Positions 8,801 through 63,100 of a DNA stretch of 64,000 bases are shown here, piece by piece (positions within the stretch are counted from its first letter, which is position 1; each line of letters begins with the position of its first letter). A program made the translations under genes and the position numbers. The stretch covers positions 34,741,395-34,805,394 of the forward strand of contig NC_054711.1 in NCBI RefSeq assembly GCF_016097555.1, read 5' to 3'. The notes beneath the pieces were generated by a model that was not told the origin of the DNA, ran no database searches, and worked only from the letters and a program-made list of their open reading frames with translations. This DNA is from Gigantopelta aegis. Lineage: Eukaryota; Mollusca; Gastropoda; Neomphalida; Peltospiridae.

Positions 8801-11800
8801 CACATACTTACCCCCACATTCCCTTTTCACTCGTCTAACTCATCTAATACTGACGTTACACAGCAAAAGTCTCACATACTTACCCCCACATTCCCTTTTC
8901 ACTCGTCTAACTCATCTAATACTGACGTTACACAGCACAAGTCTCACATACTTACCCCCACATTCCCTTTTGACTTATCCAACTCATCTAATACTGACGT
9001 TACCCAGCACCAGTCTCACATACTTACCCCCACATTCCCTTTTCACTCGTCTAACTCATCTAATACTGACATTACACAGCACAAGTCTCACATACTTACC
9101 CCCACATTCCCTTTTCACTCGTCTAACTCATCTAATACTGACATTACACAGCACAAGTCTCACATACTTACCCCCACATTCCCTTCCCTTTTCACTCGTC
9201 TAACTCATGTAATACTGACATTACCCAGCACCAGTCTCACATACTTACCCCCACATTCCCTTTTCACTCGTCTAACTCATCTAATACTGACGTTACACAG
9301 CACAAGTCTCACATACTTACCCCCACATTCCCTTTTCACTCGTCTAACTCATCTAATACTGACGTTACACAGCACAAGTCTCACATACTTACCCCCACAT
9401 TCCCTTTTGACTCGTCTAACTAATCTAATACTGACGTTACCCAGCACCAGTCTCACATACTTACCCCCACATTCCCTTTTGACTCGTCCAACTCATCTAA
9501 CACTGACATTACCCAGCACCAGTCTCACATACTTACCCCCACATTCCCTTTTGACTTATCCAACTCATCTAATACTGACGTTACCCAGCACCAGTCTCAC
9601 ATACTTACCCCCACATTCCCTTTTGACTTATCTAACTAATCTAATACTGACATTACCCAGCACCAGTCTCACATACTTACCCCCACATTCCCTTTTGACT
9701 TATCTAACTAATCTAATACTGACGTTACCCAGCACCAGTCTCACATACTTGCCCCCACATTCCCTTTTGACTTATCTAACTAATCTAATACTGACGTTAC
9801 CCAGCACCAGTCTCACATACTTACCCCCACCCCCCCACATTCCCTTTTGACTCGTCTAACTAATCTAATACTGACATTACCCAGCACAAGTCTCACATAC
9901 TTACCCCATCCCCCACATTCCCTTTTGACTCGTCTAACTAATCTAATACTGACGTTACCCAGCACCAGTCTCACATACTTACCCCCACCCCCCACATTCC
10001 CTTTTGACTCGTCTAACTAATCTAATACTGACATTACCCAGCACCAGTCTCACATACTTACTTACACCCACATTCCCTTTTGACATCTAACTAATCTAAT
10101 ACTGACATTACCCAGCACCAGTCTCACATACTTACTTACACCCACATTCCCTTTTGACGTCTAACTAATCTAATACTGACATTACCAAGCACAAGTCTTA
10201 CATACCCGACTCTCCCCAACCCCTCCCCTACTTTCAAAATCTTGTATCACCACTGTAAATGACTGCTTATGTTACAACACTGTCTACATGACTGTACCAC
10301 TTTGAAAATATTGGTCCATTTCTTTCTTAACGTCTGGCATTTCAGTTTCTCTTTTTGGGCTCCTCCTTCTTGGACTTCTGGCTTTCGTGCATGAATACAG
10401 TCGTAAATACAGCCTGTAAAAAATCAACCAATCAGAAACATTTGTAAGATAAAATATAGCTTTGACTGGGTTACAAGATGTTTATCTTTATTAAGTTACA
10501 GTTACAAAACCTGCTCTACAATATTATTTCTTAAATCTTTTGCAACTGTTGAATAACAATCTTAACAGCAGACACAAATTTTACATGACACTACAAGATT
10601 CGTCAACTAGCTGACACAATCAAGATACATGTATAAATGCATGGGTACAAATGTTTTTTTTAAAGCTTTCTTAATAATGTCATATTTTGTCATGTTGTCA
10701 AATCCATAGAAAACTCCTATTTCGCCAATTTAAAAAAAAAAAAAATGCTTCCTACACCTAAATTCACATACATGTATTTGAGAAATTGTCTTAAGTCTAC
10801 TATAGATTTCACTTCCCAATATATGTACTCTAACCAGAGTGAATGCACCACTATATGTGTAAGCCAAAAACTGACTGGTTCTCTGTGACTAGTTATGTAC
10901 ATGATTATCAAGTACTGTGGTACATGTATATATATACAATGTATATATATATATACATATGAGCTGTCCTGTATGTGTAGAAGTATATAATCTATAAATA
11001 TTTCCTCGTATGCTAATCAGATCTGGACAAGATATCCTAGTAAGCAAACTGAATGATAATTGAATTTAGGCACTGAAATACATTACAATCATCAACCAAA
11101 TTGAATGTGGGCAAAGCAATATTCATTAAAAAAAAAAAAATTGTGTTGCTTGTTTGAACATTATTTTCGGGATTATATCCACTTAACGTTCAAGCACGCT
11201 ATCCTGGGCTCACACCTAAGCTGTCTGGATTGCCTGTCCTCCCCATTTATCCGTTACAGCCTGTTACTTAACAGTATTGTAGGCACCTATACTCAATTCC
11301 ACAATTACGCATGTACGTGACTATTTAACGATCCTTACATCACATAGTGGCTTGGTGTCCCATACACATCTTTACAACAGATACATTCCCAGTCTGGAGC
11401 TTGCCGCGGTAAGACGTGTTGGTTTTGCCTGTGCACACTGTACATGTTTTCGTGTGTTTGACTTGGGAATTCTCTATTTTGTTTAGTTTTTATCAACGAA
11501 ATGGTGTTTTCTACTAGGATGTACCGTATGCAGCTATTGCAACAAACTGAATGCTGGGACGTTTCTTGATTTGACAGCCTGCACCACCAGGTTGGATTCT
11601 TTTTAGTGAGATTCTTTTCCTTCACATAATTTTTCCGGCTGACTTTTGTCGACATGTTTTTCTGTGACTCATATGACGGCCATTCTGCAGAATGCCACGG
11701 TTGTTCGCATTTAGTCTCTACATGTCGGAGCCTGTCCTGCCTCACTCTAAGAAGAAATAGGAAGTGGGGTCGGCCCTACTACTCTTTTCTAGACTTTACT

Positions 11801-14800: not shown

Positions 14801-17800
14801 TATACTGAACAAAATAAGAAACTTCCGCTAACTTTGCTTGAACATAACTTGATGAAAACAAACCGGGGAAATAATTGTTATATATGCGTTTAAAGAGTGT
14901 TCCATGATGCATTGTGTGGTGCAAAAATCATGGCCATAGGTTAACAGAATCTGGGAGAAATTTTGACCAAGTGTGGTAGGGGTTAAAAACAAACCCACCC
15001 ACTTAATAACGGGTATGACCACCTCTTGAATTGACCACTGCAGTTCATCGCAGGCGCATAGAATTGACAAGTGTTGATTTCTGCCTGTGGAATATTGTTC
15101 CATTCCTGAATGAGCGCTTGACGAAGTTCGTTGACATTAGCGGGTGGGTTGGGACGACGCCTCAATTGTCTGTCCCGACTATCCCAGACATGCTCGATGG
15201 GGTTGAGATCAGGACTTTCAGTGGGCCAGTCATCAATGAAATCAATGTTATTTGTCTTAAGAAAATTACAGTGTCTCTAGCTGTATGAGAGGTGGCATTA
15301 TCATGCTGAAAAATCAAGATGTTGGCGTTGTTATGGAACAGAGGAATGACGTGAGGAGTGAGAATGTCATTGCGGTAACGTTGAGCATTTAAATTGCCAT
15401 CAATGACGACTAGTGGTGAACGATAACCATGGGCAATGGCTGCCCAGACCATGACACAACCCCCACCCCCGAAACGATCTCGTTCAAGAACACAACAGTC
15501 AGCATAGCGTTCATTTCTCCTACAGTAGACGCGCACCCTGCCATCACCACGTTGCAAAGAAAATCTGGATTAATCCGAAAAAAGAACAGTATTCCAGTGT
15601 CGCCGTATCCAACGAGTGTGTACACATGCCCAATTAAGACGATTTAGACGATGACGTTGTGTTAAAACGCATCCAACATAAGGACGTCGTGCATGTAAAC
15701 TGTTCTCCCACAGACGATTACGAACAGTTTGCCCACTGATTCGGTTATTATGAAGCCCAGGTGTGTTAGCAGCAGTAGCAGTGGCAGTTTGGAATCGATT
15801 GCGCAAATGCGTGTTCATGATATAGCGGTCTTGACCACGCATTGTAACACGCAGATGTCCACGACGTGGCAAGTCGTTGGTGCTTCCTGTCATTCGAAAT
15901 CTTACGCAAAGATTTCGTATCGCTCGACTAGAACTCCCAACATGCCTTGCAACGTCTTCTGTTGCCAATCGCCCGTTCGCGTAAATTATTGAGTATTCTT
16001 GGCATACTAACAATGCTACAATGTAAAAAAACTTATTTTTTTTACAAATTTTGAAGCGTTTTCGTTCACTTGACAAGAATGTCAGTAAGACAAGTAAAAC
16101 AAATTGACCGAATACTACACGGGACATGTCGAACCATGCATGCAAGTGCAAATTGAATTTCATGTTGTCGACGATTAACAGTGCAAAAATAATCGATAAA
16201 ATTCATGAATCCTGATAATACAGCTCAAGGCTAATACTACCTATATAATGTCATTACACAATGAATTCTTCAACACAACAAATACTATATGTACAAATCG
16301 GAAGTTTCTTTTTTTGTTCAGTATATAACAGAATTTTCGCCATGTTCATTAGAAAATCATGAACTTTGTTTATTATTATCTTTCTTGTTTTTTTCTTTCT
16401 TTGACCATAGCAATACTTTTAGGGGTTTGTATGTAGGTTAGTGCATGCCTTAGAGGGTTGTTTTTTGGTTGTTGTTTTTGTGCGTGTGTTTTTTTGGGGG
16501 GGGGGGGGAGGAGAGGTATATTGTGGTACGGTATATTGAGAATAATTAAATTATCCTGTCATCAAGTGCCTATGAACCAGTGTGAAGAATATTCACTATG
16601 AACTGTGGTATGTATAAATAAAAACTGATATTTATTTCAATGTAATTGTTATTGTAGAAGCTGAAATATGGTAAAATCTCAGATTCTGCCAGTAGAGACT
16701 GGAATTCCACTTTCTACCGGTAGATCTGATAGACAGACATATGAGTTGTCCAGTCAAATTACAGTTTGACCCAGGACAAATTGCAATAGTAAACCAGTCA
16801 TGGTATTTATGGTTCATTAGAGTAACCTATGTGACATATCAAAAATGTAACTTTTTATATTTGGTGGAACATTTTTTTATTTAGGGTTGGAAATTATCAC
16901 TTTGTGAGATTTCATCTGGTCATTTATTATCAACATTTTGGTAAATAATCATACTATTTGCTAACTTGTTTATATCTTTATTATGGTTTTCCAGGATGAT
17001 CTTTCACAAAAAACTATTTTTAAAGTGGTAAAATGAATTGTTATACCTATATATTGGTGTGGGTGAGTACCCTAACCCATAAATGCCAATTCCCAGTGGC
17101 TAACATATGGTTAAGGACCACACAAATAATGAGAGAGGAAACCCGCTGTCGCCACTTCATGGGATATACTCTTTTCAATTAGCAGCAAAGGATCTTTCAT
17201 ATGCACCATCCCACAGACAGGGTAGTACATACTGCAGCCTTTTATATATCAGTCGTGGTGCACTGGCTGGAACGAGAAACAGCCCAATGGGCCCACCGAC
17301 GGGGACCGACCACACAGCGAGCAAGCGCTGTACCACTGGGCTACGTCCCGCCCAACATGATAACAAAGTCTGGGTTTCTGCCAGAGGGTGCTGAGGGTAA
17401 ATCACCTAACAAATCTTGGCCTGAATATGTTCACATATAAGCAACTTATGCATCCAAGTCATTGCCATTTTCATCTTCCTCATGTTTACCACAAACTCGT
17501 ATGCATTCTGAACATGCCAATGAACAATTAAGTCCATGGCACCTACATTTACCAGAAAAGTCAAGCACACGAACCACTTATTCCCCATGACATATACCAC
17601 TGAGGCAATGGCAGACAGCTGGTACAGACCTATTCCAATTTAATGGTAAAGAACACGTGATAATAGCCGATTATTACTCCAAATTCTTCTTTGTAAGGAA
17701 AGTCAGTGGAAAGTGTACAAGTAGAGCTGTAATCAGGGATTCCTAGCAAAGTGATCAGTGACAACGGAACACATTTTGACTGTATAGAGCATCTTCAGGC

Positions 17801-20800
17801 CAACCTTTTGTGATAATGTCTTTCAATAGATGATGATTAATAAATCAATGTGCTCTAGTTAAACAAAACTTTTTTCCCACTTATAGAATGACCCATTCCC
17901 CAATACCCTGAAAATTAAACAGTCTCAAGACAAAACTGGTCATGCCTTATTTTGCATGATATTAATTGGTCATCATTCTCGAACACGACTCCTGAAAGTT
18001 GTTTTATTATGAAAACATGTAATCGTTCACTCGTCTTTAATTTGAATGTGTTGCGTTATATTTTACACTTTTGAAATTTGACATTTTGCTCTGCCTTCTG
18101 ACGGTAAGCCAAATGGCCTCGCCTTCTATTACAAAGTTTGCCAAATTCGAGAGCTGTGGGCCATATTTTTTTGTTTTGTTTACAATAACGTTAGTGTTCA
18201 TGTTAAAATACTATGGAAACCTAAGACAATCAAAGGAAGAAGAACTAACCTTTGTATGTTTTCAGTATTCTGCCACTCGTCCGATCGGTAAAGTAGCCAA
18301 TAAACTGGGCTAAGGACATACACAAAATCAGACAAATTGAAATCACAGCACTAGCCAGCGACATGATGAACCATCTGTAACATTAATATCATAACATACA
18401 GTATTAATCAAAATGGCAACATTAATAAAGATAACAACACTACTGACCAACAATATTAATACAGATCAAAACATTAATAAAGATAACAACATTTATACAG
18501 GTAACATTAATACAGACAAAAATAACTAGTGATGGGAATTGGTTTAGAATTTCATCATCGATCATCGGTTGTAATCAGTTTACACCAACTGATTGACTTT
18601 CAATTAGGCTACATAATCAGTTTGAATATATACAATCTTGGGAAGGATCAGACTTTTTAGTGATTATGCGCTAATATTTCCATGTTCACTATATGAAAAT
18701 TTTAATATATCCATGTTTAAAAAACTTACATTACCAGGGGAGATACTTTTTGCATGGATATAAAAAAAGGTATATCAGGATTGTAGATGTTTGGCAAACA
18801 CTAAAGAAGCTTACATGTACAGTTCAAATATAGCATATGAACTTATTTTGAAGCATTCTGTAGCCCACAATGATGCTTTGAAATGTTTTATTTAACGACA
18901 CACTGATCAACACATTTTATTTACGGTTATACAGTGTCAGACATATGATTAAGAACCACACAGATATTGAGAGAGCAAACCCGATGTCGCCACTTCATGG
19001 GCTAATCTTTTTGATTAGCAGCAAGGGATCTCTTATATGCACCATCCCACAGACAGGATAGTACATACCACGGCCTTTGTTACACCAGTTGTAGAGCATT
19101 GGCTGGAATGAGAAATAGCCTAATGGGTCCACTGATGGGGATCAATCCTAGACCAACCGCGCATCAAGTGAACACTACCACTGGGCTACGTCCCGCCCTA
19201 AATGTTTAAAAATAAAAATATTAAATTTTTCAAAGGCAAAATGTAGCGATCATATTGAATTACAAAACATGTAGAACAAAATGTTTTAAAAGGTAGTGTA
19301 AATAACTAACCCTAACCCTACACTAACAAATATATTTTAAATTTGTTAGGGGTGGAGGGAATAATTTAGGAAGTCTTGCTAATTTTTATTGATTTAATTA
19401 TGTTTATCGTGAATAATAATTGACCGTTTACTATTTTGCTCAACTACGCCCACCACGCAAGTTAATGCTAAAACGTGTCATTTGTCGTCATTCAATGTAC
19501 TATTTCTAAAAATTACAAGATTTATTGGTACATAAGCTTTTTTGCAGTTTAGTCATTTTCACATTTTATTTTGTTGGATGGCCTTCTATCTGCTGGCTCG
19601 CTCCAGCCAGTGTACCACGATTGGTACATCAAAGGTCATGGTATATGCTATCATGTCTATGGGATAGTGCATATAAAAGATCCCTGCTGCTAATCGAAGA
19701 GTAGCTCATGAAGTGGCGACAGCGGATTTCCTTCCTCAATATCTGTGTGGTCCATAACTATATGTCCGATGCCATTTAACCATAAATAAAATTTGTTGAG
19801 TGCGTCGTTTAATAAACCATTTCCTTCCATCTGCTGGTAAAAACCAAAACATTCCCGTACCCACGATCATGTGTTTCTACTTGAATTTTGTGACTTTCAT
19901 ACTCCAATTCTGCCACCATGGATAAAGAAGCCTTAGGTGGCAGAGAAGTATATCAACCGATCAGATTTTTGTTATCCATGATTTGTATCTTCGTCAAAAA
20001 CAATCTGCCAGCCTTCTAATTGTATGCCGAAATTATGTTAAATCCCAGAAACCTGCCTATCAGGGGCGGATCCAGGATTTCGTAATGATGGGGTCCCAAA
20101 ATTATAGAAAAAGGGCACCGACCTGAGCTCCTGAAGGGAGCGACATCTGTAGGGGGATCTGGGGGAATGCTTTTTTAAATATGGATGCTCAGAAGCACAC
20201 GTTGTCAAGGCAATTGGTTTGTTAGTTGTTCTTTTGGGAAAATGTGTGAATTTTATATATAATATGGTTTAATGGGAAGCTGAAAGCAAGTATCAGCCAA
20301 GAAACAACATGTTGTTAGTCACACTGTATGGAGGGGTGAACAATGTTGACAAGTTGTATGCGTGTTGGAAATTTCATTGCAAAAATGTCAATCACTGAGT
20401 TGATAGCCACGTCTTTGTGAATATACATGATTGATTGATTGATTGATTGATTGAATGTTTGTTTAACGACACCCCAGCACAAAAATACATATCGGCTATT
20501 GGGTGTCACAAATGGTAAGTATATGAACATATTTGTATAGTCTCATGTAAAACCACAGTGTAAGGAGCTGTGGGGGGGGGGGGGGGGGAGTATAATACAA
20601 TATATAAAATCAAGTTAAGTATATCTTAAAATTATGTATAGAAGTCAAAGTGTTTTAAAAACTTTACAATTAACATTGGATGAAATTTAAACGATTCCAA
20701 AACATTTCTGTTGCCAAATATATCATTTCTTGTCGGCGTGAGATGATCACACTCCAACAAAATGTGCCGCACAGTCAGTGTACCCTGACAGTGTTCACAC

Positions 20801-23800
20801 TGAGGAGGAGGGTCCTTCTTTAAAATAAATGAATGCGTCAAATATGTATGGCCGATGCGGGCACGGCATAAGACTACTTCATCCTTCCTGCATCGCCTGT
20901 AGGATGACTGCCACTCTCCCAGGACTGCCTTGACAGAATGAAGCTTATTCGCAACCGCACCGTCCCAATCATCTTGCCAAGTCGAAAAGATATATTGGTT
21001 AATATGAAATTTAAAATCACTGTAGGGGACACCAACATGGACACGGGGCAAGTTCAAAGCAGACTTGGCAGCAACATCTGCCTTTTCGTTACCCCTAATG
21101 CCAACATGGCTAGGTACCCAACACAGTATAACATCTTTATTGGCAATTGATAAAAAGACACACTTTCGTATCACCATCCCAACTAAGGGGTGCTCCAATT
21201 TCATGTACTGTAGAGCTTGAAGACACGAAAGTGAGTCTGTAAAAATAATATACTTGGATGCATATGAATCCTTAATCTGTTCCAGGGCTTTAATGATTGC
21301 CCAAATTTCAGTAGTAAAAATTGATGCTGAATCGGGCAATCTCATGGAAATTATTGTGTCTGATGGAAACACTGTAGCACAAGCCACAGAATTCCCATCC
21401 CGTGATCCGTCTGTGTAAACAGGAATGTAATCACAGTACCGCTCTTGGATTTCCATGAAATGTTGTTTATAAATAACTGCATCTGTGCGATCTTTTTTTT
21501 AGATGCACAAGATCGAATACAATTTTTGGTGGTTTGATACACCAAGGTGGCAAAATAAAATATGAAGGCGTTTTCAAAATGTCTGTTAAATCAATGTTGG
21601 AAACTGATAAAAACTGCTTAATGCGAAGACCAAATGTTCGAATCGCATTCGGTTTCGCATCAAATAACTTCATATATTTATTATTAAACACCGCATTGTG
21701 TGCAGGATGTTTTTGGCATTGATTTAATCTTTGTAGCATACTGCAGAGAAAGCTTTGCACGTCTAGCACCCAAACTAGGTTCGTGTGCATCGACGTACAA
21801 GCTCTCCACAGGAGATGTTTTTGAAAGCACCAAGACAAAGCCTAAGTCCCTGGTTGTGTATAGGATCTAGCATTTGCAAGTAAGACTTACGTGCTGACCC
21901 ATACACAATGCACCCATAATCAAGTTTAGACCAAACTAAAGATCTATAAAGTCGGAGCATAACCTTTCGATCTGCTCCCCATTCAGTCTTACCAATAACC
22001 TTTAAGATATTGAGGGCCTTTAAGCCATTCTTTTTTACATACTGTAAATGAGGAACAAAAGATAGCCTCCTGTCAAAAATAACCCCCAGAAATTTGGTCT
22101 CCTCCACAACTGGAACCGGAGTTTTGTCCAGAAACAGCTGTGGATCTAAATGGTGACCTCTTTTCTGGCAGATATGCATACAGACTGTTTTTGACTTTGA
22201 GAATCGAAATCCATTGTCAGTTGCCCATTGTTGAAGTTTATTCAAACAAAGCTGCAACTGACGTTCAATGATACTCATACTGGACGACCTGTAGCAAATC
22301 TGAAAATCGTCGACATATAACGAGCTATCAACGCCAGGTTTTAAACACTGGATGATGCTGTTAATTTTCACGGAAAATAAAGTTACTGACAGGATGCTAC
22401 CTTGAGGCACACCCATCTCTTGGGAGTGAGAATCGGATAACGTAGATCCCACTCGTACCTTGAAAGACCTATTCTGTAAGAAATTTGAGATAAAGCCAGG
22501 CATACGGCCTCTTAGGCCCATGCCATGGAGGTCTTTCAAAATCCCATACTTCCACGTGGTATCATAAGCTTTCTCGAGATCAAAAAAGACCGATACCAAA
22601 TGCTGGTTATGGATAAAAGCATCCCTACAAAACGTTTCAAATCTAACAAGATGATCGACCGTGCTACGTCTAGGCCTGAACCCACATTGCACGTTAGTAA
22701 GCAATTTGTGGGACTCAAGATACCAGACAAGTCTACAGTTGATCATTCTTTCCATGGTTTTACAAATGCAACTTGTCAAAGCAATAGGCCGATAACTGGT
22801 AGGATTTGTTGGATCCTTACCAGGCTTAGGAATAGGAATGACAATGGCTTTTCTCCAATCAGAAGGAAAGTCACCCGAAATCCAGATTTTGTTAAAGATA
22901 TTTAATAGAACCATTAAGGATGATTCAGGTAAGTGTTTTAAGAGTTGATAATGTATTTCATCTGGTCCTACCGAAGTATCATGGGCTCTACGTAGAGCGT
23001 CCTGCAACTCCTCCAAAGAGAAGTGCCTGTTGTATACTTCAACATTTTCAGATGAAAAGTTAATAGGTTGCTTTTCAGCTCTATTTCTGACAGACGTAAA
23101 AGCATCTGTTACTGAAAGAAGAAGAAGAGTTATGGGAGAAACTTTCTGCCAATGCATTGGCAATGTCACGATGAGACGTAACATCCGTGTCATTGACAGA
23201 CAAATGGCGAACTGTATTATTGGATTCTTTCCCCTTGATTTTATATATCCTATTCCAGACAGATTTCACAGATATTTGAGAAGTCAACTTGGAGACATAA
23301 TTTCTCCAAGATGATTTCTTACTCTGTCTGATAGTTTTACGAGCCTTTGCCCAAGCAATGCGATAACTATTCAGGTTATCCCCGGTAGGTTCGCGTTTGA
23401 ACCTCTCGAGGGTCCAGTTTCGCTCTTTGATTGCATCTTTGCATGTCTCATTGAACCATGGTTTATTGAAACGCTTCGGTACTGCCGAAGTCTTAGGAAT
23501 AGTTTCCTCTGCAATATCTTTCAAGATGGAGGTGAACAAAGACATGGGATCATCGGCACCAGTCATGGCAGTTTGTTGCAGTCGAGTGCTGCATAGATGC
23601 CGAAATTGATCCCAGTTTGCCCCTGTCAACCTCCATCTCTGAACTCTTTCAAGTGATGGAGGTCCATTATTCTCCAAAATAACTGGAAAGTGGTCACTAC
23701 CACAAGGGTCTGGACAAACTTTCCATGAGAAAATCAAGACAAAACATGATATCAGGGGCGGATCCAGGATTTCGTAATGATGGGGTCCCAAAATTATAGA

Positions 23801-26800
23801 AAAAGGGCACCGACCTGAGCTCCTGAAGGGAGCGACATCTGTAGGGGGATCTGGGGGAATGCTTTTTTAAATATGGATGCTCAGAAGCACACGTTGTCAA
23901 GGCAATTGGTTTGTTAGTTGTTCTTTTGGGAAAATGTGTGAATTTTATATATAATATGGTTTAATGGGAAGCTGAAAGCAAGTATCAGCCAAGAAACAAC
24001 ATGTTGTTAGTCACACTGTATGGAGGGGTGAACAATGTTGACAAGTTGTATGCGTGTTGGAAATTTCATTGCAAAAATGTCAATCACTGAGTTGATAGCC
24101 ACGTCTTTGTGAATATACATGATTGATTGATTGATTGATTGATTGAATGTTTGTTTAACGACACCCCAGCACAAAAATACATATCGGCTATTGGGTGTCA
24201 CAAATGGTAAGTATATGAACATATTTGTATAGTCTCATGTAAAACCACAGTGTAAGGAGCTGTGGGGGGGGGGGGGGGGGGGGAGTATAATACAATATAT
24301 AAAATCAAGTTAAGTATATCTTAAAATTATGTATAGAAGTCAAAGTGTTTTAAAAACTTTACAATTAACATTGGATGAAATTTAAACGATTCCAAAACAT
24401 TTCTGTTGCCAAATATATCATTTCTTGTCGGCGTGAGATGATCACACTCCAACAAAATGTGCCGCACAGTCAGTGTACCCTGACAGTGTTCACACTGAGG
24501 AGGAGGGTCCTTCTTTAAAATAAATGAATGCGTCAAATATGTATGGCCGATGCGGGCACGGCATAAGACTACTTCATCCTTCCTGCATCGCCTGTAGGAT
24601 GACTGCCACTCTCCCAGGACTGCCTTGACAGAATGAAGCTTATTCGCAACCGCACCGTCCCAATCATCTTGCCAAGTCGAAAAGATATATTGGTTAATAT
24701 GAAATTTAAAATCACTGTAGGGGACACCAACATGGACACGGGGCAAGTTCAAAGCAGACTTGGCAGCAACATCTGCCTTTTCGTTACCCCTAATGCCAAC
24801 ATGGCTAGGTACCCAACACAGTATAACATCTTTATTGGCAATTGATAAAAAGACACACTTTCGTATCACCATCCCAACTAAGGGGTGCTCCAATTTCATG
24901 TACTGTAGAGCTTGAAGACACGAAAGTGAGTCTGTAAAAATAATATACTTGGATGCATATGAATCCTTAATCTGTTCCAGGGCTTTAATGATTGCCCAAA
25001 TTTCAGTAGTAAAAATTGATGCTGAATCGGGCAATCTCATGGAAATTATTGTGTCTGATGGAAACACTGTAGCACAAGCCACAGAATTCCCATCCCGTGA
25101 TCCGTCTGTGTAAACAGGAATGTAATCACAGTACCGCTCTTGGATTTCCATGAAATGTTGTTTATAAATAACTGCATCTGTGCGATCTTTTTTTAGATGC
25201 ACAAGATCGAATACAATTTTTGGTGGTTTGATACACCAAGGTGGCAAAATAAAATATGAAGGCGTTTTCAAAATGTCTGTTAAATCAATGTTGGAAACTG
25301 ATAAAAACTGCTTAATGCGAAGACCAAATGTTCGAATCGCATTCGGTTTCGCATCAAATAACTTCATATATTTATTATTAAACACCGCATTGTGTGCAGG
25401 ATGTTTTGGCATTGATTTAATCTTTGTAGCATACTGCAGAGAAAGCTTTGCACGTCTAGCACCCAAACTAGGTTCGTGTGCATCGACGTACAAGCTCTCC
25501 ACAGGAGATGTTTTGAAAGCACCAAGACAAAGCCTAAGTCCCTGGTTGTGTATAGGATCTAGCATTTGCAAGTAAGACTTACGTGCTGACCCATACACAA
25601 TGCACCCATAATCAAGTTTAGACCGAACTAAAGATCTATAAAGTCGGAGCATAACCTTTCGATCTGCTCCCCATTCAGTCTTACCAATAACCTTTAAGAT
25701 ATTGAGGGCCTTTAAGCCATTCTTTTTACATACTGTAAATGAGGAACAAAAGATAGCCTCCTGTCAAAAATAACCCCCAGAAATTTGGTCTCCTCCACAA
25801 CTGGAACCGGAGTTTTGTCCAGAAACAGCTGTGGATCTAAATGGTGACCTCTTTTCTGGCAGATATGCATACAGACTGTTTTTGACTTTGAGAATCGAAA
25901 TCCATTGTCAGTTGCCCATTGTTGAAGTTTATTCAAACAAAGCTGCAACTGACGTTCAATGATACTCATACTGGACGACCTGTAGCAAATCTGAAAATCG
26001 TCGACATATAACGAGCTATCAACGCCAGGTTTTAAACACTGGATGATGCTGTTAATTTTCACGGAAAATAAAGTTACTGACAGGATGCTACCTTGAGGCA
26101 CACCCATCTCTTGGGAGTGAGAATCGGATAACGTAGATCCCACTCGTACCTTGAAAGACCTATTCTGTAAGAAATTTGAGATAAAGCCAGGCATACGGCC
26201 TCTTAGGCCCATGCCATGGAGGTCTTTCAAAATCCCATACTTCCACGTGGTATCATAAGCTTTCTCGAGATCAAAAAAGACCGATACCAAATGCTGGTTA
26301 TGGATAAAAGCATCCCTACAAAACGTTTCAAATCTAACAAGATGATCGACCGTGCTACGTCTAGGCCTGAACCCACATTGCACGTTAGTAAGCAATTTGT
26401 GGGACTCAAGATACCAGACAAGTCTACAGTTGATCATTCTTTCCATGGTTTTACAAATGCAACTTGTCAAAGCAATAGGCCGATAACTGGTAGGATTTGT
26501 TGGATCCTTACCAGGCTTAGGAATAGGAATGACAATGGCTTTTCTCCAATCAGAAGGAAAGTCACCCGAAATCCAGATTTTGTTAAAGATATTTAATAGA
26601 ACCATTAAGGATGATTCAGGTAAGTGTTTTAAGAGTTGATAATGTATTTCATCTGGTCCTACCGAAGTATCATGGGCTCTACGTAGAGCGTCCTGCAACT
26701 CCTCCAAAGAGAAGTGCCTGTTGTATACTTCAACATTTTCAGATGAAAAGTTAATAGGTTGCTTTTCAGCTCTATTTCTGACAGACGTAAAAGCATCTGT

Positions 26801-29800
26801 TACTGAAAGAAGAAGAAGAGTTATGGGAGAAACTTCTGCCAATGCATTGGCAATGTCACGATGAGACGTAACATCCGTGTCATTGACAGACAAATGGCGA
26901 ACTGTATTATTGGATTCTTTCCCCTTGATTTTATATATCCTATTCCAGACAGATTTCACAGATATTTGAGAAGTCAACTTGGAGACATAATTTCTCCAAG
27001 ATGATTTCTTACTCTGTCTGATAGTTTTACGAGCCTTTGCCCAAGCAATGCGATAACTATTCAGGTTATCCCCGGTAGGTTCGCGTTTGAACCTCTCGAG
27101 GGTCCAGTTTCGCTCTTTGATTGCATCTTTGCATGTCTCATTGAACCATGGTTTATTGAAACGCTTCGGTACTGCCGAAGTCTTAGGAATAGTTTCCTCT
27201 GCAATATCTTTCAAGATGGAGGTGAACAAAGACATGGGATCATCGGCACCAGTCATGGCAGTTTGTTGCAGTCGAGTGCTGCATAGATGCCGAAATTGAT
27301 CCCAGTTTGCCCCTGTCAACCTCCATCTCTGAACTCTTTCAAGTGATGGAGGTCCATTATTCTCCAAAATAACTGGAAAGTGGTCACTACCACAAGGGTC
27401 TGGACAAACTTTCCATGAGAAATCAAGACAAAGTGATGGACTACAAAGGGTTAAATCAATGGATGTGAAAGAACCACTTGCAGGATGAAAGTATGTATGA
27501 CTTTTATCATTAAGTAATATTAAGTCATTTTTGAGAATTAAGTCTTCTAATTGTTTACCTCTAGTGTTTATGTCATCGCATCCCCACAAAGTGTGGTGTG
27601 CATTAAAATCTCCCATGATAATAAAGGGAGTAGGGAGTTGATCAAGAAGACCTTGAAAGTCCCTAGTGCTAAAATTGTAATTGTTTCGAGGGGGTAAATA
27701 AACTGAACAGAGAGTAATAGTTTTATGAGCTGTGACCTTTACGCCACAGCTTGTAAAGTCGACTTTAATATGACTTCACTCTGGGGAATGTTTTCATTTA
27801 CAATAATGGAAACGCCCCCAGACGCTCTGTTTTCACTCTGTTGACATTTATGGTAGAGATTAAATCCTCTGATGTTAATACTGTCAGTATCCTTCAGGAA
27901 AGTTTCCTGAAGACACACTGCAAGAGGATTATACTTTTGAATTAGAAGACTTAATTCATCAAAATTGGGCCTAAGCCCACGACAGTTCCACTGGATAACT
28001 TTATTTTCCATCGGGAGGAAGTATGGGTTTTATCTTTGGCTTTGCTGGTGGTCTTTGTGATCGGCAATGATCTGGAGATGAAATCTCCATATCATCATCA
28101 CCGATATCAGCCAAAGTATCATACATATTGCTGATCGGGACTGAACGTAATTCGATCTTTTTCAGCCTACCAGACAGTACTTCTGTAGCTTTCTTTGGAG
28201 ATTTCTTTGTGTCATTGCCTGTCTTAGGGAGACTAGTGCTCGACCTATTTGGTGGATTTTTAAAATCCAGTGACACTTGAGTTTCAATTTCCTTTTTCTG
28301 GGGTGTGATTTTTTTTCTTTTGTGCTGCTTTTTGCACCTGTTTTTGCGTCTTCTCAATATCAGACAGTTTCTTGTACTTGGCTTCATCACAATGCCAAGT
28401 GAGGTCTGTGTTGACTGCAACACTTTTAGTGGCGACTTTGGCAGCAGCTGCAGCTGCATATGACTTGTCACCGACTGTAGGTGTTGCTGTCTCCACCAAC
28501 CTCCTGGCATCCGTGAAGGACAGTTTATTTTGTACCTTCACCTGTTGAACTCTTTTTTCCAGCTTCCACCACGGACACTCTCGCGAGTATGCACAGTGGT
28601 TTCCCTTGCAGTTGATACAAAGTGTATCGTTCTTACATGTCTTGCTGTCATGGTCAAATAGACCACAACGAGCGCATGTAAGTTTTCTACGACATGTGTT
28701 CTGACCATGGCCAAACCGCTGGCATTTGAAGCAACGCAAGGGGTTTGGAATAAAGGGTTCAACAGGAATATTAAGGTAACCGGCTTTGACAGATTGAGGA
28801 AGGGTAGGGACGTTAAAGGTGAGGATACAAGTATTCGTCGGTAACAAGTCATTGTTTCGACGAACCTTTATCCTCCTCACCGCAGTAACACCCTGAGAAC
28901 TTAAATTTTCGCAGATTTCTTCTTCAGTAACACCTTCCAAATCTCTGCATCTGATCACTCCCTTTGACGAGTTGAGGGAGGTATGCGGAGTTACCTTAAT
29001 CGGCACGTTACAAAAAACTGTCGACTTGAGGAGGCAAGTTGAATGCTTGTTAGTTGAACATTCAACCAACAGCCCATTTTTAATTTTTTTAACTGATTTT
29101 GGCTCACCAGCCAAGCCAACAATTGCCTTTTGAATGGCAAACGGGGATAATTTGTTCAAGGCCCCATCATCAGTAGAACTGATGACAAGAAACCTTGGCC
29201 AATTTTGTGAAGAAATCACTTTGGATTTCTTCACACTTTTCTTTGATTTCATGGACTCCTCGTCCGAAGACAAGAAGTCCGAAACTTCAGTGTGGACCCT
29301 TTTCAGGGTCCCATCAGAATTTGTAATAAATTTTTTGGTTAAATCCATATTTAATGAATAAAAGGTTCATCATCCATGCCCCCCACCCTCCACTGAGTCC
29401 AACAAGGGAACATGGTGCTGCGGATAACCAGCAGACAGCCATGCCAGGGATACATGGTTGATATACTTGGGCATTAAGAAAACAAAATCACCCAATTGAC
29501 CCTAGCCACCGCCCCAAGAGTAACAAATACATATGGTATATAAAACAATGTTTGCTCTTGACTAAATGTAAACAAAACAAAGATTGTGTGCTCTCGAGCT
29601 TGGCGTGACCAGCCGATTGATCAGGTCCGGCCTACCTGACCGCCCGTCTATTTGAACTCCGGGCCAAATTAAGTGATGTATTGCATGCAAGTCCATATAA
29701 TCGATCCTCCATCATAGTTGTACGTGTAAGGGGGTAGTAATTATATGTCCAGGGGGAGCAAATTGATTCCCTTCACCCCCAAATATGAATATAATAAATA

Positions 29801-48743: not shown

Positions 48744-50241
48744 TTAGTGGGTCACTTCAGGAAGAATGAAACACCACTTTGTTAAGACTATTGTGCTTCA
48801 ATTTTTATGTCTTGCTGACAGTTTACAGATAGGGTGTGGAAGTGCTATCATACATTCCCACGGTTACATTCGATAAAACGCAGCTACTGTACAATAAAGT
48901 TCCAAAATGTGAATATTCGCAAAAACGCAGCCACGTGCAAACCATGTCACCACTGCACGTGCGTTGTCTGCACGTGCAACATGAACACCGACAGTATAAA
49001 AGTGCAGGGTGTTCGCTTGCCTGGCCTCTGTATCTGGCCGACAGTTGACAATCCAGGACATGCCACGTCTCAGTGAACTGCAGAGAAACAATGCCATCGG
49101 CCGACTAGACGCAGGCAAATCCAGAACGGCCGTTGCCAGGGCATTCCATGTGTCCCCAAGCACCAGCTCCAGACTGTGGGACCGTTACCAGCAACATGGA
49201 TCAACACGTGACCTCCCTAGATCCGGTCGACCACGGTTCACTACCCCCGGGCAGGACCGCTACATCCGGGTACGCCACCTTCGGGAACGATTGACTACTG
49301 CCACCTCCACAGCCGCAGCAATACCAGGTTTGCGCAGGATATCCGACCAGACCGTACGGAACCGCCTACGTGAGGTAGGAATTCGTGCCAGACGTCCAGT
49401 TCGAGGTGTCATCTTAACACCACAACACCGTCGACTCCGACTGCAGTGGTGCCAGATTCATCGACAATGGCCTCGACTGCGATGGAGACAGGTGTGGTTC
49501 AGTGACGAGTCCCGATTTCTGCTCCGACGTCATGATGGAAGATGTCGCGTGTATAGGCGTCGTGGTGAACGTTATGCGGCATACTGCGTGCAGGAAGTGG
49601 ACAGATTCGGCGGGGGTAGTGTCATGGTGTGGGCAGCCATCTCACACACTGGCAGAACTGACCTGGTCCACGTGCAGGGCAACCTGAATGCACAGGGCTA
49701 CATTGACCAGATTCTCCGGCCACACATCGTTCCAGTTATGGCCAACGCCAACGCAGTGTTCCAACATGACAACGCCAGGCCTCACACAGCACGTCTCACA
49801 ACGGCTTTCCTACAGAACAACAACATTAATGTCCTTCCTTGGCCATTGATATCACCGGATTTGAACCCAATTGAGCATCTATGGGACGAGTTGGACCGAC
49901 GCCTCCGACAGCGACAACCACAGCCCCAGACCCTGCCCGAGCTGGCAGTAGCCTTGCAGGCCGAGTGGGCCACCATCCCCCGGGACGTCATCCGTACTCT
50001 GGTTGCTTCAATGGGCAGGCGGTGCCAGGCAGTTGTCAACACACGCGGAGGCCACACCCGGTATCGACTCCAGATGACCTTGACCTTGGTGGTGTGTCCT
50101 ATCACTTACTCACAATGGACTAGAGTGAATTGTGAACAATCCTGCAACATTTGGTAATTATCGGACTCACCATTCAATAATTAAATCAATTCTCCAAATG
50201 TTACGACAATGTGGTTTTGTGTTTCTTCTTTTGAAGAGTAT
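48744..50241 (+). mobile_element. Tc1-type DNA transposon nested in the TIR element
   Basis: Ends are imperfectly inverted (CTTCAGGAAGAATGAAACAC left; CTTCAAAAGAAGAAACACAA right, reversed) next to TA dinucleotides. Composition is much richer in GC than the surroundings. Limits are approximate by about 10 bp. Confidence 0.8.
49060..50157 (+). CDS. Tc1-family transposase, open frame
   Basis: Cut-and-paste transposase. From ATG at 49060: helix-turn-helix region MPRLSELQRNNAIGRL and VARAFHVSPSTSSRLWDRYQ, then RSGRPRFTTPGQDRYI (AT-hook-like link). Catalytic D in VWFSDESRF, D in QHDNARPHTA, and E 34 residues later in [13 protein letters not shown] (D34E). The family normally stops after GGHTRY; here the codon after Tyr is CGA and the frame runs 26 more residues, possibly a lost TGA. 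The ORF could begin at 49009 but MPRL is the family start. No internal break is seen, so the protein may be competent or only recently silenced. Confidence 0.9.
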   Translation: MPRLSELQRNNAIGRLDAGKSRTAVARAFHVSPSTSSRLWDRYQQHGSTRDLPRSGRPRFTTPGQDRYIRVRHLRERLTTATSTAAAIPGLRRISDQTVRNRLREVGIRARRPVRGVILTPQHRRLRLQWCQIHRQWPRLRWRQVWFSDESRFLLRRHDGRCRVYRRRGERYAAYCVQEVDRFGGGSVMVWAAISHTGRTDLVHVQGNLNAQGYIDQILRPHIVPVMANANAVFQHDNARPHTARLTTAFLQNNNINVLPWPLISPDLNPIEHLWDELDRRLRQRQPQPQTLPELAVALQAEWATIPRDVIRTLVASMGRRCQAVVNTRGGHTRYRLQMTLTLVVCPITYSQWTRVNCEQSCNIW

Positions 50242-52296: not shown

Positions 52297-52454
52297 TTAC
52301 ATATCGTTTTAGTATAGATTCATCAAATACACGTACCAATACTTATTTTACATATCGTTTTAGTATAGATTCATCAAATACACGTACCAATACTTATTTT
52401 ACATATCGTTTTAGTATAGATTCATCAAATACACGTACCAATACTTATTTTATA
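52297..52454 (+). repeat. 51-bp minisatellite, 3 units
   Basis: Unit ACATATCGTTTTAGTATAGA, TTCATCAAATACACGTACCA, ATACTTATTTT, three near-identical copies. Confidence 0.95.
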
Positions 52455-52741
52455 GTGATACACATGTAATATTGATTACTGCTTTTGCCAGCTTCGTTTA
52501 GTAATATATTCGTCAAATTAAGCTTTAATTTGCATTTGGAAATTTTGCGAACATCTTAAATGCTGAGATAAAGCGCATAATATCAGTGTCTTATGTATCG
52601 GTCATGAATACTGGTCCATCAAAGTATATAGATGGGCTAGAGATACCTTGATTCAATCCATTATCTAATACATAAAAAAAACAAATAACAGGTAAAATTA
52701 TTTATTCCATCTCGTGGTGTATATATTTACATTTAATATTA

Positions 52742-52903
52742 TTAGGCTCTCAAATAATCACTAAGATATATACCCACATAACAGGTAAAATTATCTACAT
52801 AATAATCACTAAGATATATACCCACATAACAGGTAAAATTATCTACATAATAATCACTAAGATATATACCCACATAACAGGTAAAATTATCTATATAATA
52901 AAA
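52742..52903 (+). repeat. 48-bp minisatellite, 3 units
   Basis: Unit AATAATCACTAAGATATATA, CCCACATAACAGGTAAAATT, ATCTACAT; three copies. Confidence 0.95.
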
Positions 52904-52941
52904 AGTTATATATATATAATTTGTTTTAAAGCCGCTGATCC

Positions 52942-53190
52942 TAGTATCAGAGGTGTACACATGTACGTATCATTTGTTTGATATAAAATTAATATTTAGC
53001 TGCTACAAATATCAGAGGTATACGTACCATTTGTTTGATATAAAATTAATATTTACCTGCTACAAATATCAGAGGTATACGTACCATTTGTTTGATATAA
53101 AATTAATATTTACCTGCTACAAATATCAGAGGTATACGTACCATTTGTTTGATATAAAATTAATATTTACCTGCTACAAATATCAGGGTG
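52942..53190 (+). repeat. 57-bp minisatellite, 4 units
   Basis: Unit ATCAGAGGTATACGTACCAT, TTGTTTGATATAAAATTAAT, ATTTACCTGCTACAAAT; four copies, first one variant. Confidence 0.95.
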
Positions 53191-58659: not shown

Positions 58660-58745
58660 TTGAATACCATGACGACTGTCGGTGGACATCAATATGCACA
58701 GTGTTAGGCGGCAGTTTCAAAGGCACTCTCTTAAGTTTGCAGCCA
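58660..58745 (-). repeat. SV2-like: Degenerate copy of the SV2-like C-terminal coding end
   Basis: Minus-strand translation reads LKLPPNTVHIDVH, against LKLPNTVRIDIH in the real last exon. The surrounding sequence lacks the rest of the exon. It is a relic, not a second exon that I can join. Confidence 0.75.
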
Positions 58746-58799
58746 TTATAAAACATTTCCAACTAAAATAGCATTTTTGGTGACTAAAATTACATATTA

Positions 58800-59670
58800 A
58801 ATACATTTTCTTGCTTAGAATGCCAGTCACAGTGTCTGCATATATAATGTGTTTACAGTTGTGTGCTAATATTTGCAGAAGTCATTGTTAATTTTACTTC
58901 ATAATATATATTTTTCCTACGTACAAAATTATTGGAAGGTGAAGTCTGGTTTGAGTTGCTACAAACATTAGGAAGACAACAAAAACCTTATTTATACAAA
59001 TACTGATAGCCTAAACAAGAAAATACCTTAAATATATAGAGGCTATTCCATGAAATGGTTTATTTATTACATTTTTCCTAATTTTTGACAATATCTTTTG
59101 CTTTTTGGTAATATCTTTTGCTTATCCTATCGAAAACACGTAATGCACGAAAATTTACTTGACCATAGACTTTTAAAAAGAAACTTAAATTAAAATTATC
59201 TTTATTAACATTTATTTAATAATACTGCTGTGCAAACATACCTGACAAAGCGATCCTCCAAAACCTCCCACAAAAACAAAACGAATCGAATGCCGTTAAA
59301 TTCTTACATGTACATTCAATGACACTACATTGTTTCATCAATATTTAGCTTCGTATTCAATTCATGTAAGATATTTTATCGTAATTGCATTGGTAATCAT
59401 CAGATTTAAATACGAAGAAATGAGACAAAGGGAGATAATTTAATCATGCACTTTTACAAAAAAGTAAATACGATTTCTATATTTTCACTGTAGCTAAAAT
59501 AGTGAAAATACGACTTTTCACCAGATATCACTTTTATGGTTTCCGTAGATCTATATATTTCATTGCTATGTATATAATAAGTAAGTTTAGTCATAAAAAA
59601 GGATCTGTTAGTCATAAACATCCTACAACGGCAGCAAACTGAGGACCATCCCTTTAAGTATGACAAAAGA
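58800..59670. other. Downstream of the SV2-like gene, nothing recognised
   Basis: AT-rich flank that may include 3' UTR on the minus strand. GATCTCTATTTT-like or coding signals were not found. Confidence 0.45.
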
Positions 59671-59676
59671 TTGTAG

Positions 59677-60062
59677 TGCAGCTACTAGTCACTGTTACCA
59701 TGACAACATTCAGTGTATATCAAATGGCAGTGTTAGGCAGTCGGTGATGTTTTCTATGCAAACCACCAAAAGAAAGTAGTGCTGTCACCAGTCACTGTTA
59801 CCATAACAACTCTTGGTGGATATAAATAGGCACAGTGACTGTGTTAGGGCAGTTTCAAGTCTGACAAACCACCAATCTGAAAGTAGTGCAGCTTGTTACC
59901 ATGGTTACACTCGGTGGATATCAAGATGTGTAATGAGGATTACAACCCAACAAAAGAGTTCAGTGCAGTCTGCAACCATAATGACACTCAGTGGATGTCA
60001 ATACGGACGGTGTTAGGCAGTTTTAAGGACGACAGACCACCAAAAGAAAGTAGCGTGGCAAC
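59677..60062 (-). repeat. SV2-like: About 100-bp tandem repeat that includes the SV2-like coding end
   Basis: Four degenerate units begin near 59677, 59777, 59882 and 59963. Shared plus-strand phrases are CACTGTTACCAT, GGTGGATATCAA, GTGTTAGGCAG and CAAACCACCAAAAGAAAGTA. The rightmost unit is the coding end of the terminal exon. Confidence 0.8.
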
Positions 60063-60171
60063 AAGGATCATGGGAACGGCACAGCTAACATCGACAAGTT
60101 GCCCGAACACAACATTTCCGAGAATTGCTCCGAGACGACCGACCCCATTTACCACACCCGACGCCGTTGAT
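59988..60171 (-). CDS. SV2-like: SV2-like terminal exon
   Basis: The acceptor is a long polypyrimidine run then TATTGCAG/ATCAAC. It encodes STASGVVNGVGRLGAILGN, GQLVDVSCAVPMILVATLL and the closing LKLPNTVRIDIH, then TGA. Degenerate copies of its last 75 bp or so recur downstream (59677-59965 and 58660-58740). Confidence 0.92.
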
Positions 60172-63100
60172 CTGCAATAGAAAAAAAAAACCCAACATTT
60201 TATTAAACATAATTTTACTGAAATCACATGGCAAGTAAAATATTTACTGTGGAGGTGGACAGCAAAAGAAACTGAAAGACAGGAGGAGTTGCCAGATCGG
60301 GAAGAAATAAGATGGAATTCAAAGGAGTAAAAGGAAAGGGGGCAGTGGGATTAATTTTTTTTTTAAAATAATTGTGTACTCATCTGTTGAATAAAACTTT
60401 TAATGTGTAGTTATTGTGCAAATAAAACTTTTATGTGGCATATAAAACCTTAACTATGTATTCACCTGGCAAGGACAAACTTTAGTGAGTATTTCCATGT
60501 CAAGTAAACCTTTTACTCTGAATTAATATGGCAAGCAAAAAGTTGCAAGTACATATACTTCACAGTATTTCTCTGGCAAGTGAAACGTTTAGCAAGTAAG
60601 ATTTTTGCTACATATTCATCAGTTACCTGGTAATTTGTTTTTAATTGAACCATACAGGATACAACAAATATAGCTTTAACCTGACCAAAGAAATCTTTGA
60701 TTGTACATCCACCTGACAAACAACAAGCATTCTGAGCATACTGCTAATGCAATACATGTCCCCTACTATGCTATATGTATATATACTTAACTCCAAAAGA
60801 AACGCGAATACATAGATTGGAGGTTTTGAGTGCACTCATTGAAATACGTCCCAAAGTTCTTAAAATAATCGTTTCTATGAAAAACTTAAACAATTCGTAA
60901 AGATGAGATTTCATGTTATTGACATGTTAAAAATCGAGGTCGCATTGTCATTTGAAATGTCAAGGCCATGGCGCTTCTTCAATGGCGTCACATGCCACTC
61001 AAACATGTCCACTAATAGCGGGTGTGTCCGCCATTGCTGGCCATGACCGCCGCACACCTCCTACCCATGGAGAGGAAGAGGTTCCTGATGAAGGCCCTGG
61101 GCACGTTGTTGTAGGTGTCCACGACGGCCTGGCGGAGCTGCTGCTATGTCACCACGGGAGCAGGGCGTTGGTTCATCATGCGCTGAACCTCGTCCCACAA
61201 GTGCTCGATGGGGTTCAGATCCGGGCTTAAAGCTGGCCAGTCCATTGTGATGATGTTGTGCTGTGCCAGGAATGCCTGGGTGGCCCGTGCCGTGTGTGGC
61301 CTGGCGTTGTCGTGCTGGTAAACCATCTGACGGTGACCCGCGAAAAAAGGCACCACCACAGGCGTGAGCACTTCGTCGATGTAGCGCTGTGCTGTGACGC
61401 CCCTGCCGCGTCCTCGGCCGTTGTTGTCGAAGATGACAGGTTGTACACGACGTCCCCAGGATATGGCACCCCACAGAATGACGGAAGGCCCTCCCCAACG
61501 GTCCCTTTCCATAACACACGCATCTGTGAAGCGCTCACCTCGACGCCTCCACACCCTCATACGACCGTCGGCCCTATCTAAGCAGTAGCGGCTTTCGTCG
61601 GAGAAGACGATGTTCTGCCACTGTCGGTTCCGCCACTGTCGATGCAGAACAGCCCAGTTGTGTCGTGCAAGGCGGTGTCGCTGTGTGAGACGTTGTCCAA
61701 TGTACGGTCGACGACAGTTCAGATGGATGGCGATCAGACGACGACGTCGTACCGTGGTGTAGGAAACGGGGCGGTTGTGGGTTTCCCACTGTCTGCCGGG
61801 CTGTTGTGGTGGCTGGTACGAACCGATCACGCATGTGAGTTCGGACGATGTAACGGTCCTGGTGCTGTGACGTCACTCTGGGACGGCCGCTACGTGGACG
61901 GTCGACGACGTTGTTGTTCTGTAGAAATCGGTCTATGAGACGGTAGATTGTCGAGACATGGACACCGAAAGCACGTGCAACCTGCCTGGCATCCATTCCG
62001 GCCTCCAAATTCCCCAAAGCTCTATGTCTGGAATCAGCGTTAAGTCGTGGCATCGTTGTATCGCTACTCGTAAAATGAGTTGAACATTGCTGTCTGGCGT
62101 TTCTTTTATACCCAGGCCTGGTAGTGTTTCACGTGCAATTCGCATCTTTCATGATCCACCCGTTTTGCATTCCAGATCAATTTTGGTCGTCAATTTCAGC
62201 ACGTGCGTGACGTCACACTGTACTCGTTTTTTTCATGCGTTATGTGGAATTGGATACGCTGACAATATGGCTATTGGTCAACTTAATCGATTTGTACATA
62301 GTTTATTCAAATGTGGGTTTTTTAATATTTTAAAATTTTCGCGTTTCTTTTGGAGTTAAGTATATATAGCATTAGTGGCTATACATTTTTTATTAATATC
62401 AGCAGGACCATTGAATTTTGTATGCGCACCTTTGGTTGCTTGGGGGAAACAAACCCTAAAAAGGACAACCTCTGTTGTCCAGCTCTTTCTCCCAGGATAT
62501 TGGTTTAAACACACCCACTAAACCTGGCCGGAGTTTACACAAAAAACCCTACTTTTACATGTGCCAGAATGACCACAAAAAAAAGTCTTCAAATGTCAAC
62601 AAGTTACACATGTTTGCAAACTACAAGCTCTTCAGTCTAATAGTTGCCACTTCAAAGCTGTCTTGCCATGAAATAACACAGTCAAACAGCAGACTACTTT
62701 AAGCGAATATATTTCCAGATTTTGGTCAACCAAATGGGAAGATAACTGTGATCTGAGGCCTGACAGAGCTATGCGCTTAATTTCAGATCAATATCTTGGA
62801 AAAACTAAAAGTTTGGAAAACTATACATGGAATAGACAGACAGACAGACACAAGAACTAAAGCCCCCTCCATTTGGACTGGTATGGGTCTAATAAATATA
62901 TTTGGTACAAACACCAGACAGATATATCTCTTACAGACTTTAATTTTTTTTTACATCCTGGAGTGAAAAATTACCTGCCTCAAAATTGTGAAGGAGAAAA
63001 ACTTGCACATCTCAAAATAACTGCAGTTAGAGGGGAAGTACAGTTTTGTTCAAATGAGAGGCATGATCATACTCACCATGACTGGTATATCAAAGGCTGT

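What the first reader, a model, noticed from the sequence alone, without database searches (positions are those of the whole stretch)
58660..60062. The C-terminal coding end of the SV2-like gene is tandemly repeated downstream in decayed form
The last 75 bp or so of the terminal exon (encoding LKLPNTVRIDIH and its stop) is the rightmost unit of an approximately 100-bp tandem array (59677-60062), and a further copy at 58660-58745 still reads LKLPPNTVHIDVH. A coding end captured by, or born from, a minisatellite is unusual. Either the exon end was duplicated repeatedly, or the repeat array supplied the C-terminus.
Basis: partly seen in the sequence, partly recalled or inferred. Interest (0 to 1): 0.72.

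Follow-up and report, generated by a model that had tools for sequence, protein, structure and literature searches.

The report
Gene's coding end copied in tandem
The last 66 coding bases of a mollusc transporter gene, stop codon included, were duplicated end to end behind the gene and then decayed, and some other exon edges in the same genome show the same kind of duplication.

Summary
Four decayed units lie downstream of the SV2-like stop codon. A profile of those four alone finds the exon end at E=5e-12; the window's next-best hit has E=1.4. The duplicated exon part is 60053-59988: LLSFGGLSSLKLPNTVRIDIH and the stop.

The "further copy" at 58660 is the outermost unit of the same array, pushed away by a 934-bp MITE-like insert at a TTAA site.

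Homology settles the polarity. The exon end aligns with SV2A/SV2B through L(K/R)LP(E/N)T, and 6 of 8 SV2 rows have six residues left after it, as here. The exon made the array; the array did not supply the C-terminus.

It is not isolated. 3 of 17 predicted splice boundaries of this gene, and 4 of 41 in a sample of kinase, transporter and myosin exons, have exon edge plus splice site repeated into the intron. Such arrays are called "mirages" in amphioxus (passages of PMC3087553 and PMC3902484). Nine library searches showed me none for molluscs. Enrichment at exon edges depends on the null: none against base coverage, odds ratio 2.7 (p=0.02, non-independent controls) against matched pseudo-boundaries.

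The parts
59988..60171 (-). Terminal coding exon of the SV2-like gene; acceptor at 60171, stop codon 59990-59988
   Evidence: translation, predicted acceptor and frame chain with upstream exons, SV2A/SV2B match
59966..60053 (-). Unit E: exon end (66 coding nt with stop) plus 22 nt beyond it
59887..59965 (-). Unit U1, decayed copy with an internal deletion
59780..59886 (-). Unit U2, decayed copy, best preserved against the exon (63 of 88 aligned positions)
59677..59779 (-). Unit U3, decayed copy
59654..59676 (-). Unit U4, exon-side part, ending in TTAA at the insertion site
58720..59653 (.). 934-bp MITE-like insert splitting U4; terminal inverted repeats 58734-58806 and 59568-59640 (74%)
   Evidence: similar ends in other fetched loci, next to TTAA or a one-base variant in L014, L016, L032 and L039
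58648..58719 (-).

Best explanation
The array is a minisatellite born from the 3' coding end of an SV2-like transporter gene. A segment of 66 coding nt including the stop, plus about 22-40 nt beyond it, was tandemly duplicated. The copy nearest the exon body keeps the original stop codon, so later copies fall in the 3' UTR or 3' flank and are free to decay; there are now four, and the five units are pairwise 60-72% alike. Later a TTAA-targeting MITE-like element entered the outermost unit and pushed its far half about 0.9 kb away. A similar process made better-preserved arrays at splice sites of this gene and of other genes in this genome: exon edge plus splice site repeated into the intron, the authentic edge being the unit next to the exon body. 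Shown: homology, polarity, place of the stop, the insert, recurrence at other predicted exon edges. Inferred: slippage or unequal exchange as the mechanism, neutrality of the extra units, use of the authentic stop and splice sites in mRNA.
For: Homology far above shuffles and profile E=5.4e-12 for the exon end. C-terminus conserved: SV2B 5.4e-9 with the last exon alone, 6 of 8 SV2 rows with six residues after the match, as here; SV2B 8.9e-87 with nine predicted exons. Insert with inverted repeats at a TTAA that the exon also has at the same place. Arrays at exon B acceptor, exon D acceptor and donor of the same gene, and in 4 of 41 sampled boundaries.
Against: No orthologue without the array was seen, so age and polarity rest on protein conservation. 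No RNA. The own-genome DNA searches found only this place but are insensitive: they did not report the neighbouring units either. A weak translated hit on contig C9 (E=0.35, 40% identity, one in-frame stop, ending SLPLPNTVTFNTH) is unexplained; the unit profile finds nothing there. Exon edges are not enriched over plain array coverage of introns.
Confidence: 0.87

Rival explanations
1. A pre-existing minisatellite supplied the C-terminus: the exon ran into one array unit, whose frame gave the tail and the stop.
For: Exon end and units are homologous, and repeats alone do not show direction.
Against: The exon-end peptide matches SV2B and SV2A through the repeated part, with the same six-residue tail in 6 of 8 rows.
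Confidence: 0.03
2. The similarity is a generic dispersed repeat or chance.
For: Window and neighbouring sequence are rich in tandem arrays and transposons.
Against: No further profile hit in the window or in 271 kb of fetched loci; only this place in own-genome DNA searches of limited sensitivity; far above shuffles.
Confidence: 0.02
3. The downstream units are alternative coding ends, giving the protein different tails.
For: U4 still reads LKLPPNTVHIDVH.
Against: Units carry only about the last 21 codons and differ by insertions and deletions that break the frame; no exon body is duplicated with them.
Confidence: 0.03
4. The array is kept as a functional 3' UTR element.
For: The nearest AATAAA after the stop lies at 59206, 784 nt on, so U1-U3 could be transcribed.
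Against: Units are strongly diverged, no Rfam family matches the window, and an insert splits one unit.
Confidence: 0.05

Closest known systems
'Mirage' minisatellites of amphioxus genes (Adh3, globins BflGb6 and BflGb9, troponin C; similar repeats in PGBD5). Passages of PMC3087553 and PMC3902484 seen; the Adh and troponin papers only as cited there
   Same: Tandem repeats made of an exon edge and its neighbouring non-coding sequence; either edge can be affected; the authentic copy is taken to be the one next to the exon body.
   Different: The array of this finding spans the stop codon and 3' UTR, not a splice site. Host is a mollusc, not a cephalochordate. The arrays at exons B and D and at L037, L039, L060 and L063 do span predicted splice sites.
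Intron gain by tandem genomic duplication of AGGT-containing segments (search listing and start of abstract of PMC4974935; listing of PMC3443670)
   Same: Tandem duplication across sequence that can act as splice sites.
   Different: Here copies lie in introns or the 3' flank of exons that already exist; no new intron is shown.
TTAA-targeting MITEs (class name from recall)
   Same: Terminal inverted repeats, ends resembling TTAAAGGGACATTCC, several copies in fetched loci.
   Different: The copy here is about 0.93 kb with an internal stretch that the shorter relatives lack; no source transposase was sought.

Membership tests
Mirage minisatellite (array of this finding) | Repeat unit spans an exon-intron boundary | tested here: not met
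   The unit spans the stop codon and 3' flank, 60053-59966; it works like a mirage but is not filed as one.
Mirage minisatellite (other arrays) | Repeat unit spans an exon-intron boundary | tested here: met
   3 of 17 predicted boundaries of this gene and 4 of 41 sampled; boundaries are predicted from homology and GT/AG, not from RNA.
Mirage minisatellite (other arrays) | Unit length in the range reported for amphioxus (10-72 bp Adh3, 150-160 bp globins) | tested here: met
   20-24 to 137 bp; 80 and 137 bp fall between the two reported ranges.
Mirage minisatellite (other arrays) | Normal splicing in spite of repeated splice sites | not testable with these tools
   No RNA data.
Mirage minisatellite (other arrays) | Length instability between haplotypes | not testable with these tools
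   One assembly only.
Intron gain by tandem duplication | An intron absent from orthologues, flanked by the duplicated segment | not tested
   No orthologous genes were available.
TTAA-targeting MITE (insert 58720-59653) | Terminal inverted repeats, TTAA target duplication, several copies | tested here: met
   74% inverted repeats; TTAA on one side and TTCA on the other; relatives next to TTAA or a one-base variant in L014, L016, L032, L039; L026 ends not resolved.

The most novel reading that the evidence does not exclude
In this mollusc lineage exon edges are preferred birthplaces of minisatellites (4 of 41 sampled splice boundaries carry one), through a process tied to exon edges and not to splice signals alone, since it also struck a stop-codon edge. 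Molluscs and cephalochordates would then share a general animal process that keeps copying exon edges into introns and 3' UTRs, raw material for new introns and new C-termini.
Probability: 0.2. Interest if true: 0.8.

Novelty: new variant of a known kind. Interest (0 to 1): 0.5.

Why it matters
Tandem duplication of exon edges is a proposed source of new introns and altered protein ends, but the 'mirage' examples that my searches found are all in amphioxus. A mollusc genome with several such arrays in one gene, and in 4 of 41 sampled exon boundaries, offers many natural cases for testing how repeated splice sites and a repeated stop-codon edge are tolerated. In the stop-codon case the first stop would shield all later copies from selection.

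Tried and rejected
Considered and rejected: the array as donor of the C-terminus; the 58660 copy as an independent duplication (one interrupted unit); extension of the repeat further into the exon (not significant, shuffle p 0.09 to 0.56 for the four spacers). A hit on contig C9 (E=0.35 for 61 aa) was first translated in the wrong frame (not used); in frame it reads SLPLPNTVTFNTH with one in-frame stop and the unit profile finds nothing there; I leave it as unexplained or chance. Rfam finds no family in the window. Pfam gave nothing above cut-off for two exon peptides.

Enrichment, three nulls. (a) Base coverage: none (4 of 41 boundaries against 79 of 576 intronic 45-mers). (b) Founder segments: 1.5% expected, P=0.0036 for 4 of 41 (two other P values printed there assumed 4 of 17 and 8 of 58, while the cut-off used gives 3 of 17 and 7 of 58). 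(c) Matched pseudo-boundaries: 123 of 3774 (3.3%) in sampled loci, P=0.044; 5.9% of 5051 in this gene's introns, which include its own exon-edge arrays, P=0.075; pooled odds ratio 2.7, p=0.021. Pseudo-points share loci and are not independent. I rest on (c) and call it modest. The gene itself was chosen because of its array; the last exon end is not among the 17.

Rows dropped: of 53 sampled loci (30 kinase, 9 sugar transporter, 14 myosin), 12 on small contigs were left out before boundary finding (41 kept). Of 48 boundaries scored, 7 uncertain ones were dropped by eye (41 kept); none of the 7 reached the cut-off of 36 (highest 29). The L039 donor was set by hand. Below the cut-off and not counted: exon A acceptor (33), L062 donor (34) and acceptor (32). 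Arrays of L056 and L069 abut acceptors without exon bases and are not counted; L068, on a small contig, has an array near its match and was left out with it.

Paper searches that ran. Passages seen: PMC3087553, PMC3902484, PMC6905558, PMC12783039. The abalone and earthworm passages report intronic minisatellites and do not describe exon-edge repeats. 'Not seen for molluscs' rests on these searches of the held library alone.

Full report
What is there. On the minus strand the terminal coding exon of an SV2-like gene runs from 60171 to the stop at 59990-59988. From 60053 its sequence, LLSFGGLSSLKLPNTVRIDIH and the stop, is the first of five homologous units. U1 (59965-59887), U2 (59886-59780) and U3 (59779-59677) follow without a break. 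U4 is split into 59676-59654 and 58719-58648. Pairwise identities are 60-72%, and Tandem Repeats Finder at its default score does not list the array. A profile built from U1-U4 alone finds the exon end at E=5.4e-12; apart from the five units the best hit in 64 kb has E=1.4, and in 271 kb of fetched loci 2.9. The exon-array alignment score of 59.5 is not reached by any of 2000 shuffles. The left limit in the exon is 60053; similarity further upstream is not significant.

The stray copy. The two halves of U4 are separated by a 934-bp insert (58720-59653) with 74% terminal inverted repeats. Its ends match those of other elements in fetched loci; in L014, L016, L032 and L039 these begin next to TTAA or a one-base variant. 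It lies between TTAA and TTCA, at the place where the exon reads CTTAAAACTGCC. So the copy seen at 58660 is the outer half of the fourth downstream unit.

Which came first. With the exon peptide alone, SV2B matches at 5.4e-9 and SV2A chains at about 5e-4 to 7e-4, through L(K/R)LP(E/N)T. Of the 8 SV2 rows, 6 leave six residues after that point, as the window protein does (VRIDIH); the other two leave 12 and 17, perhaps because of construct ends. With nine predicted exons, SV2B matches at 8.9e-87, ahead of SLC22A11 at 4e-22. The exon end is therefore ancestral and the array derived.

Recurrence in the gene. Reading on into the adjacent sequence, other exon edges carry arrays. Exon B's acceptor with about 31 nt of exon (GMLVGGYLWGS) is repeated as a 51-bp unit in two blocks of 6.7 and 47.5 copies. 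Exon D's acceptor with about 43 nt (GLAWIVIPHKTLGYF) forms a 57-bp unit, 7.5 copies. Exon D's last 13 nt with its donor form a 28-bp unit, 4.1 copies. Exon A's acceptor abuts a 41-bp array with five exon bases, below my cut-off. At the edges of exons B and D the coding sequence lies inside the SV2B alignment, so the direction is again from exon to array.

Genome sample. Exons were found by Pfam profiles for kinases, sugar transporters and myosin heads: 53 loci, 41 on chromosome-size contigs. Of 41 retained splice boundaries, 4, all donors, are repeated into the adjacent intron: L037 (MAP-kinase-like exon ending NEDCHIRIGDFG|GTAAGT, units of about 38 bp), L039 (ICYVL|GTAAGT, 137-bp units), L060 (ACAG|GTAAAT, 20-24-bp units) and L063 (GAGAGG|GTGAGT, 80-bp units). 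Introns are themselves rich in arrays (79 of 576 random 45-mers), so against plain coverage there is no excess. Against pseudo-boundaries that must look like a one-sided array edge, 7 of 58 real boundaries give an odds ratio of 2.7, p=0.02. This is modest and provisional: control points share loci and the boundaries are predicted.

Mechanism. Tandem duplication across an exon edge leaves one copy attached to the exon body. If its stop or splice site goes on being used, further copies lie in non-coding sequence and can expand or decay. Behind a stop codon this should be especially safe, since translation ends in the first unit. The units of this finding are among the most decayed; TRF gives 88-98% matches for the arrays at exons A, B and D and at L039 and L063, 82% for L037 and 67-72% for L060. 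Slippage or unequal exchange as the cause, and neutrality, are inferences.

Known counterparts. Amphioxus genes carry minisatellite-like duplications of exon-intron boundaries named mirages (passages of PMC3087553 and PMC3902484). The splice-site arrays here meet the structural definition. The stop-codon array does not, as it spans no splice site, but it works the same way. Nine literature searches showed me no report of such arrays in a mollusc.

The organism. A molluscan-type haemocyanin domain is found in the assembly, on small contigs (that this type is molluscan is recalled).

Limits. No orthologues, haplotypes or RNA were available. The own-genome DNA search misses diverged copies: it did not report U1-U4 when given one unit. 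N-terminal exons, and probably one exon before exon G, were not identified.

Noticed in passing
window 20041-29366, minus strand: Two largely overlapping sets of near-identical ORFs in tandem, with reverse-transcriptase-like and RNase-H-like sequence (names from recall): probably two copies of one non-LTR retrotransposon.
   Followed up: no
window 61061-62128 (intron before the last exon), 15165-16202 and 49000-50154: ORFs resembling Tc1/mariner transposases (name from recall); the one at 49000-50154 is a 385-aa open frame.
   Followed up: no
window 52297-53186: Three different tandem arrays side by side (51, 48 and 57 bp; 98-100% matches), two with a CAG|GTAAA-like motif in the unit.
   Followed up: no
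window 8328-10205: 72-bp array of 25.6 copies whose minus-strand unit holds a GGTAAGTATG donor-like motif; no exon identified beside it.
   Followed up: no
L006-L008 (C13:34801382-34820474): The SV2-like protein lacks most of the large luminal stretch of SV2B: SV2B residues 420-533 face only about 23 residues here.
   Followed up: partly
L007 (exon B array) and L007 (exon D array): The exon B and exon D array units are 51 and 57 bp, both multiples of three, and are open in frame over long stretches: use of an outer acceptor could add repeats to the protein.
   Followed up: no
L003 (C9:20287887-20288027): Weak translated resemblance to the last exon (E=0.35, 40% identity, one in-frame stop), ending SLPLPNTVTFNTH; no match to the unit profile.
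   Followed up: partly
small contigs of G000, for example C666, C776, C1673: Many kinase-like matches lie on small contigs, several with in-frame stops; loci L038, L043 and L044 have G+C 0.31-0.33. Possibly another organism.
   Followed up: no
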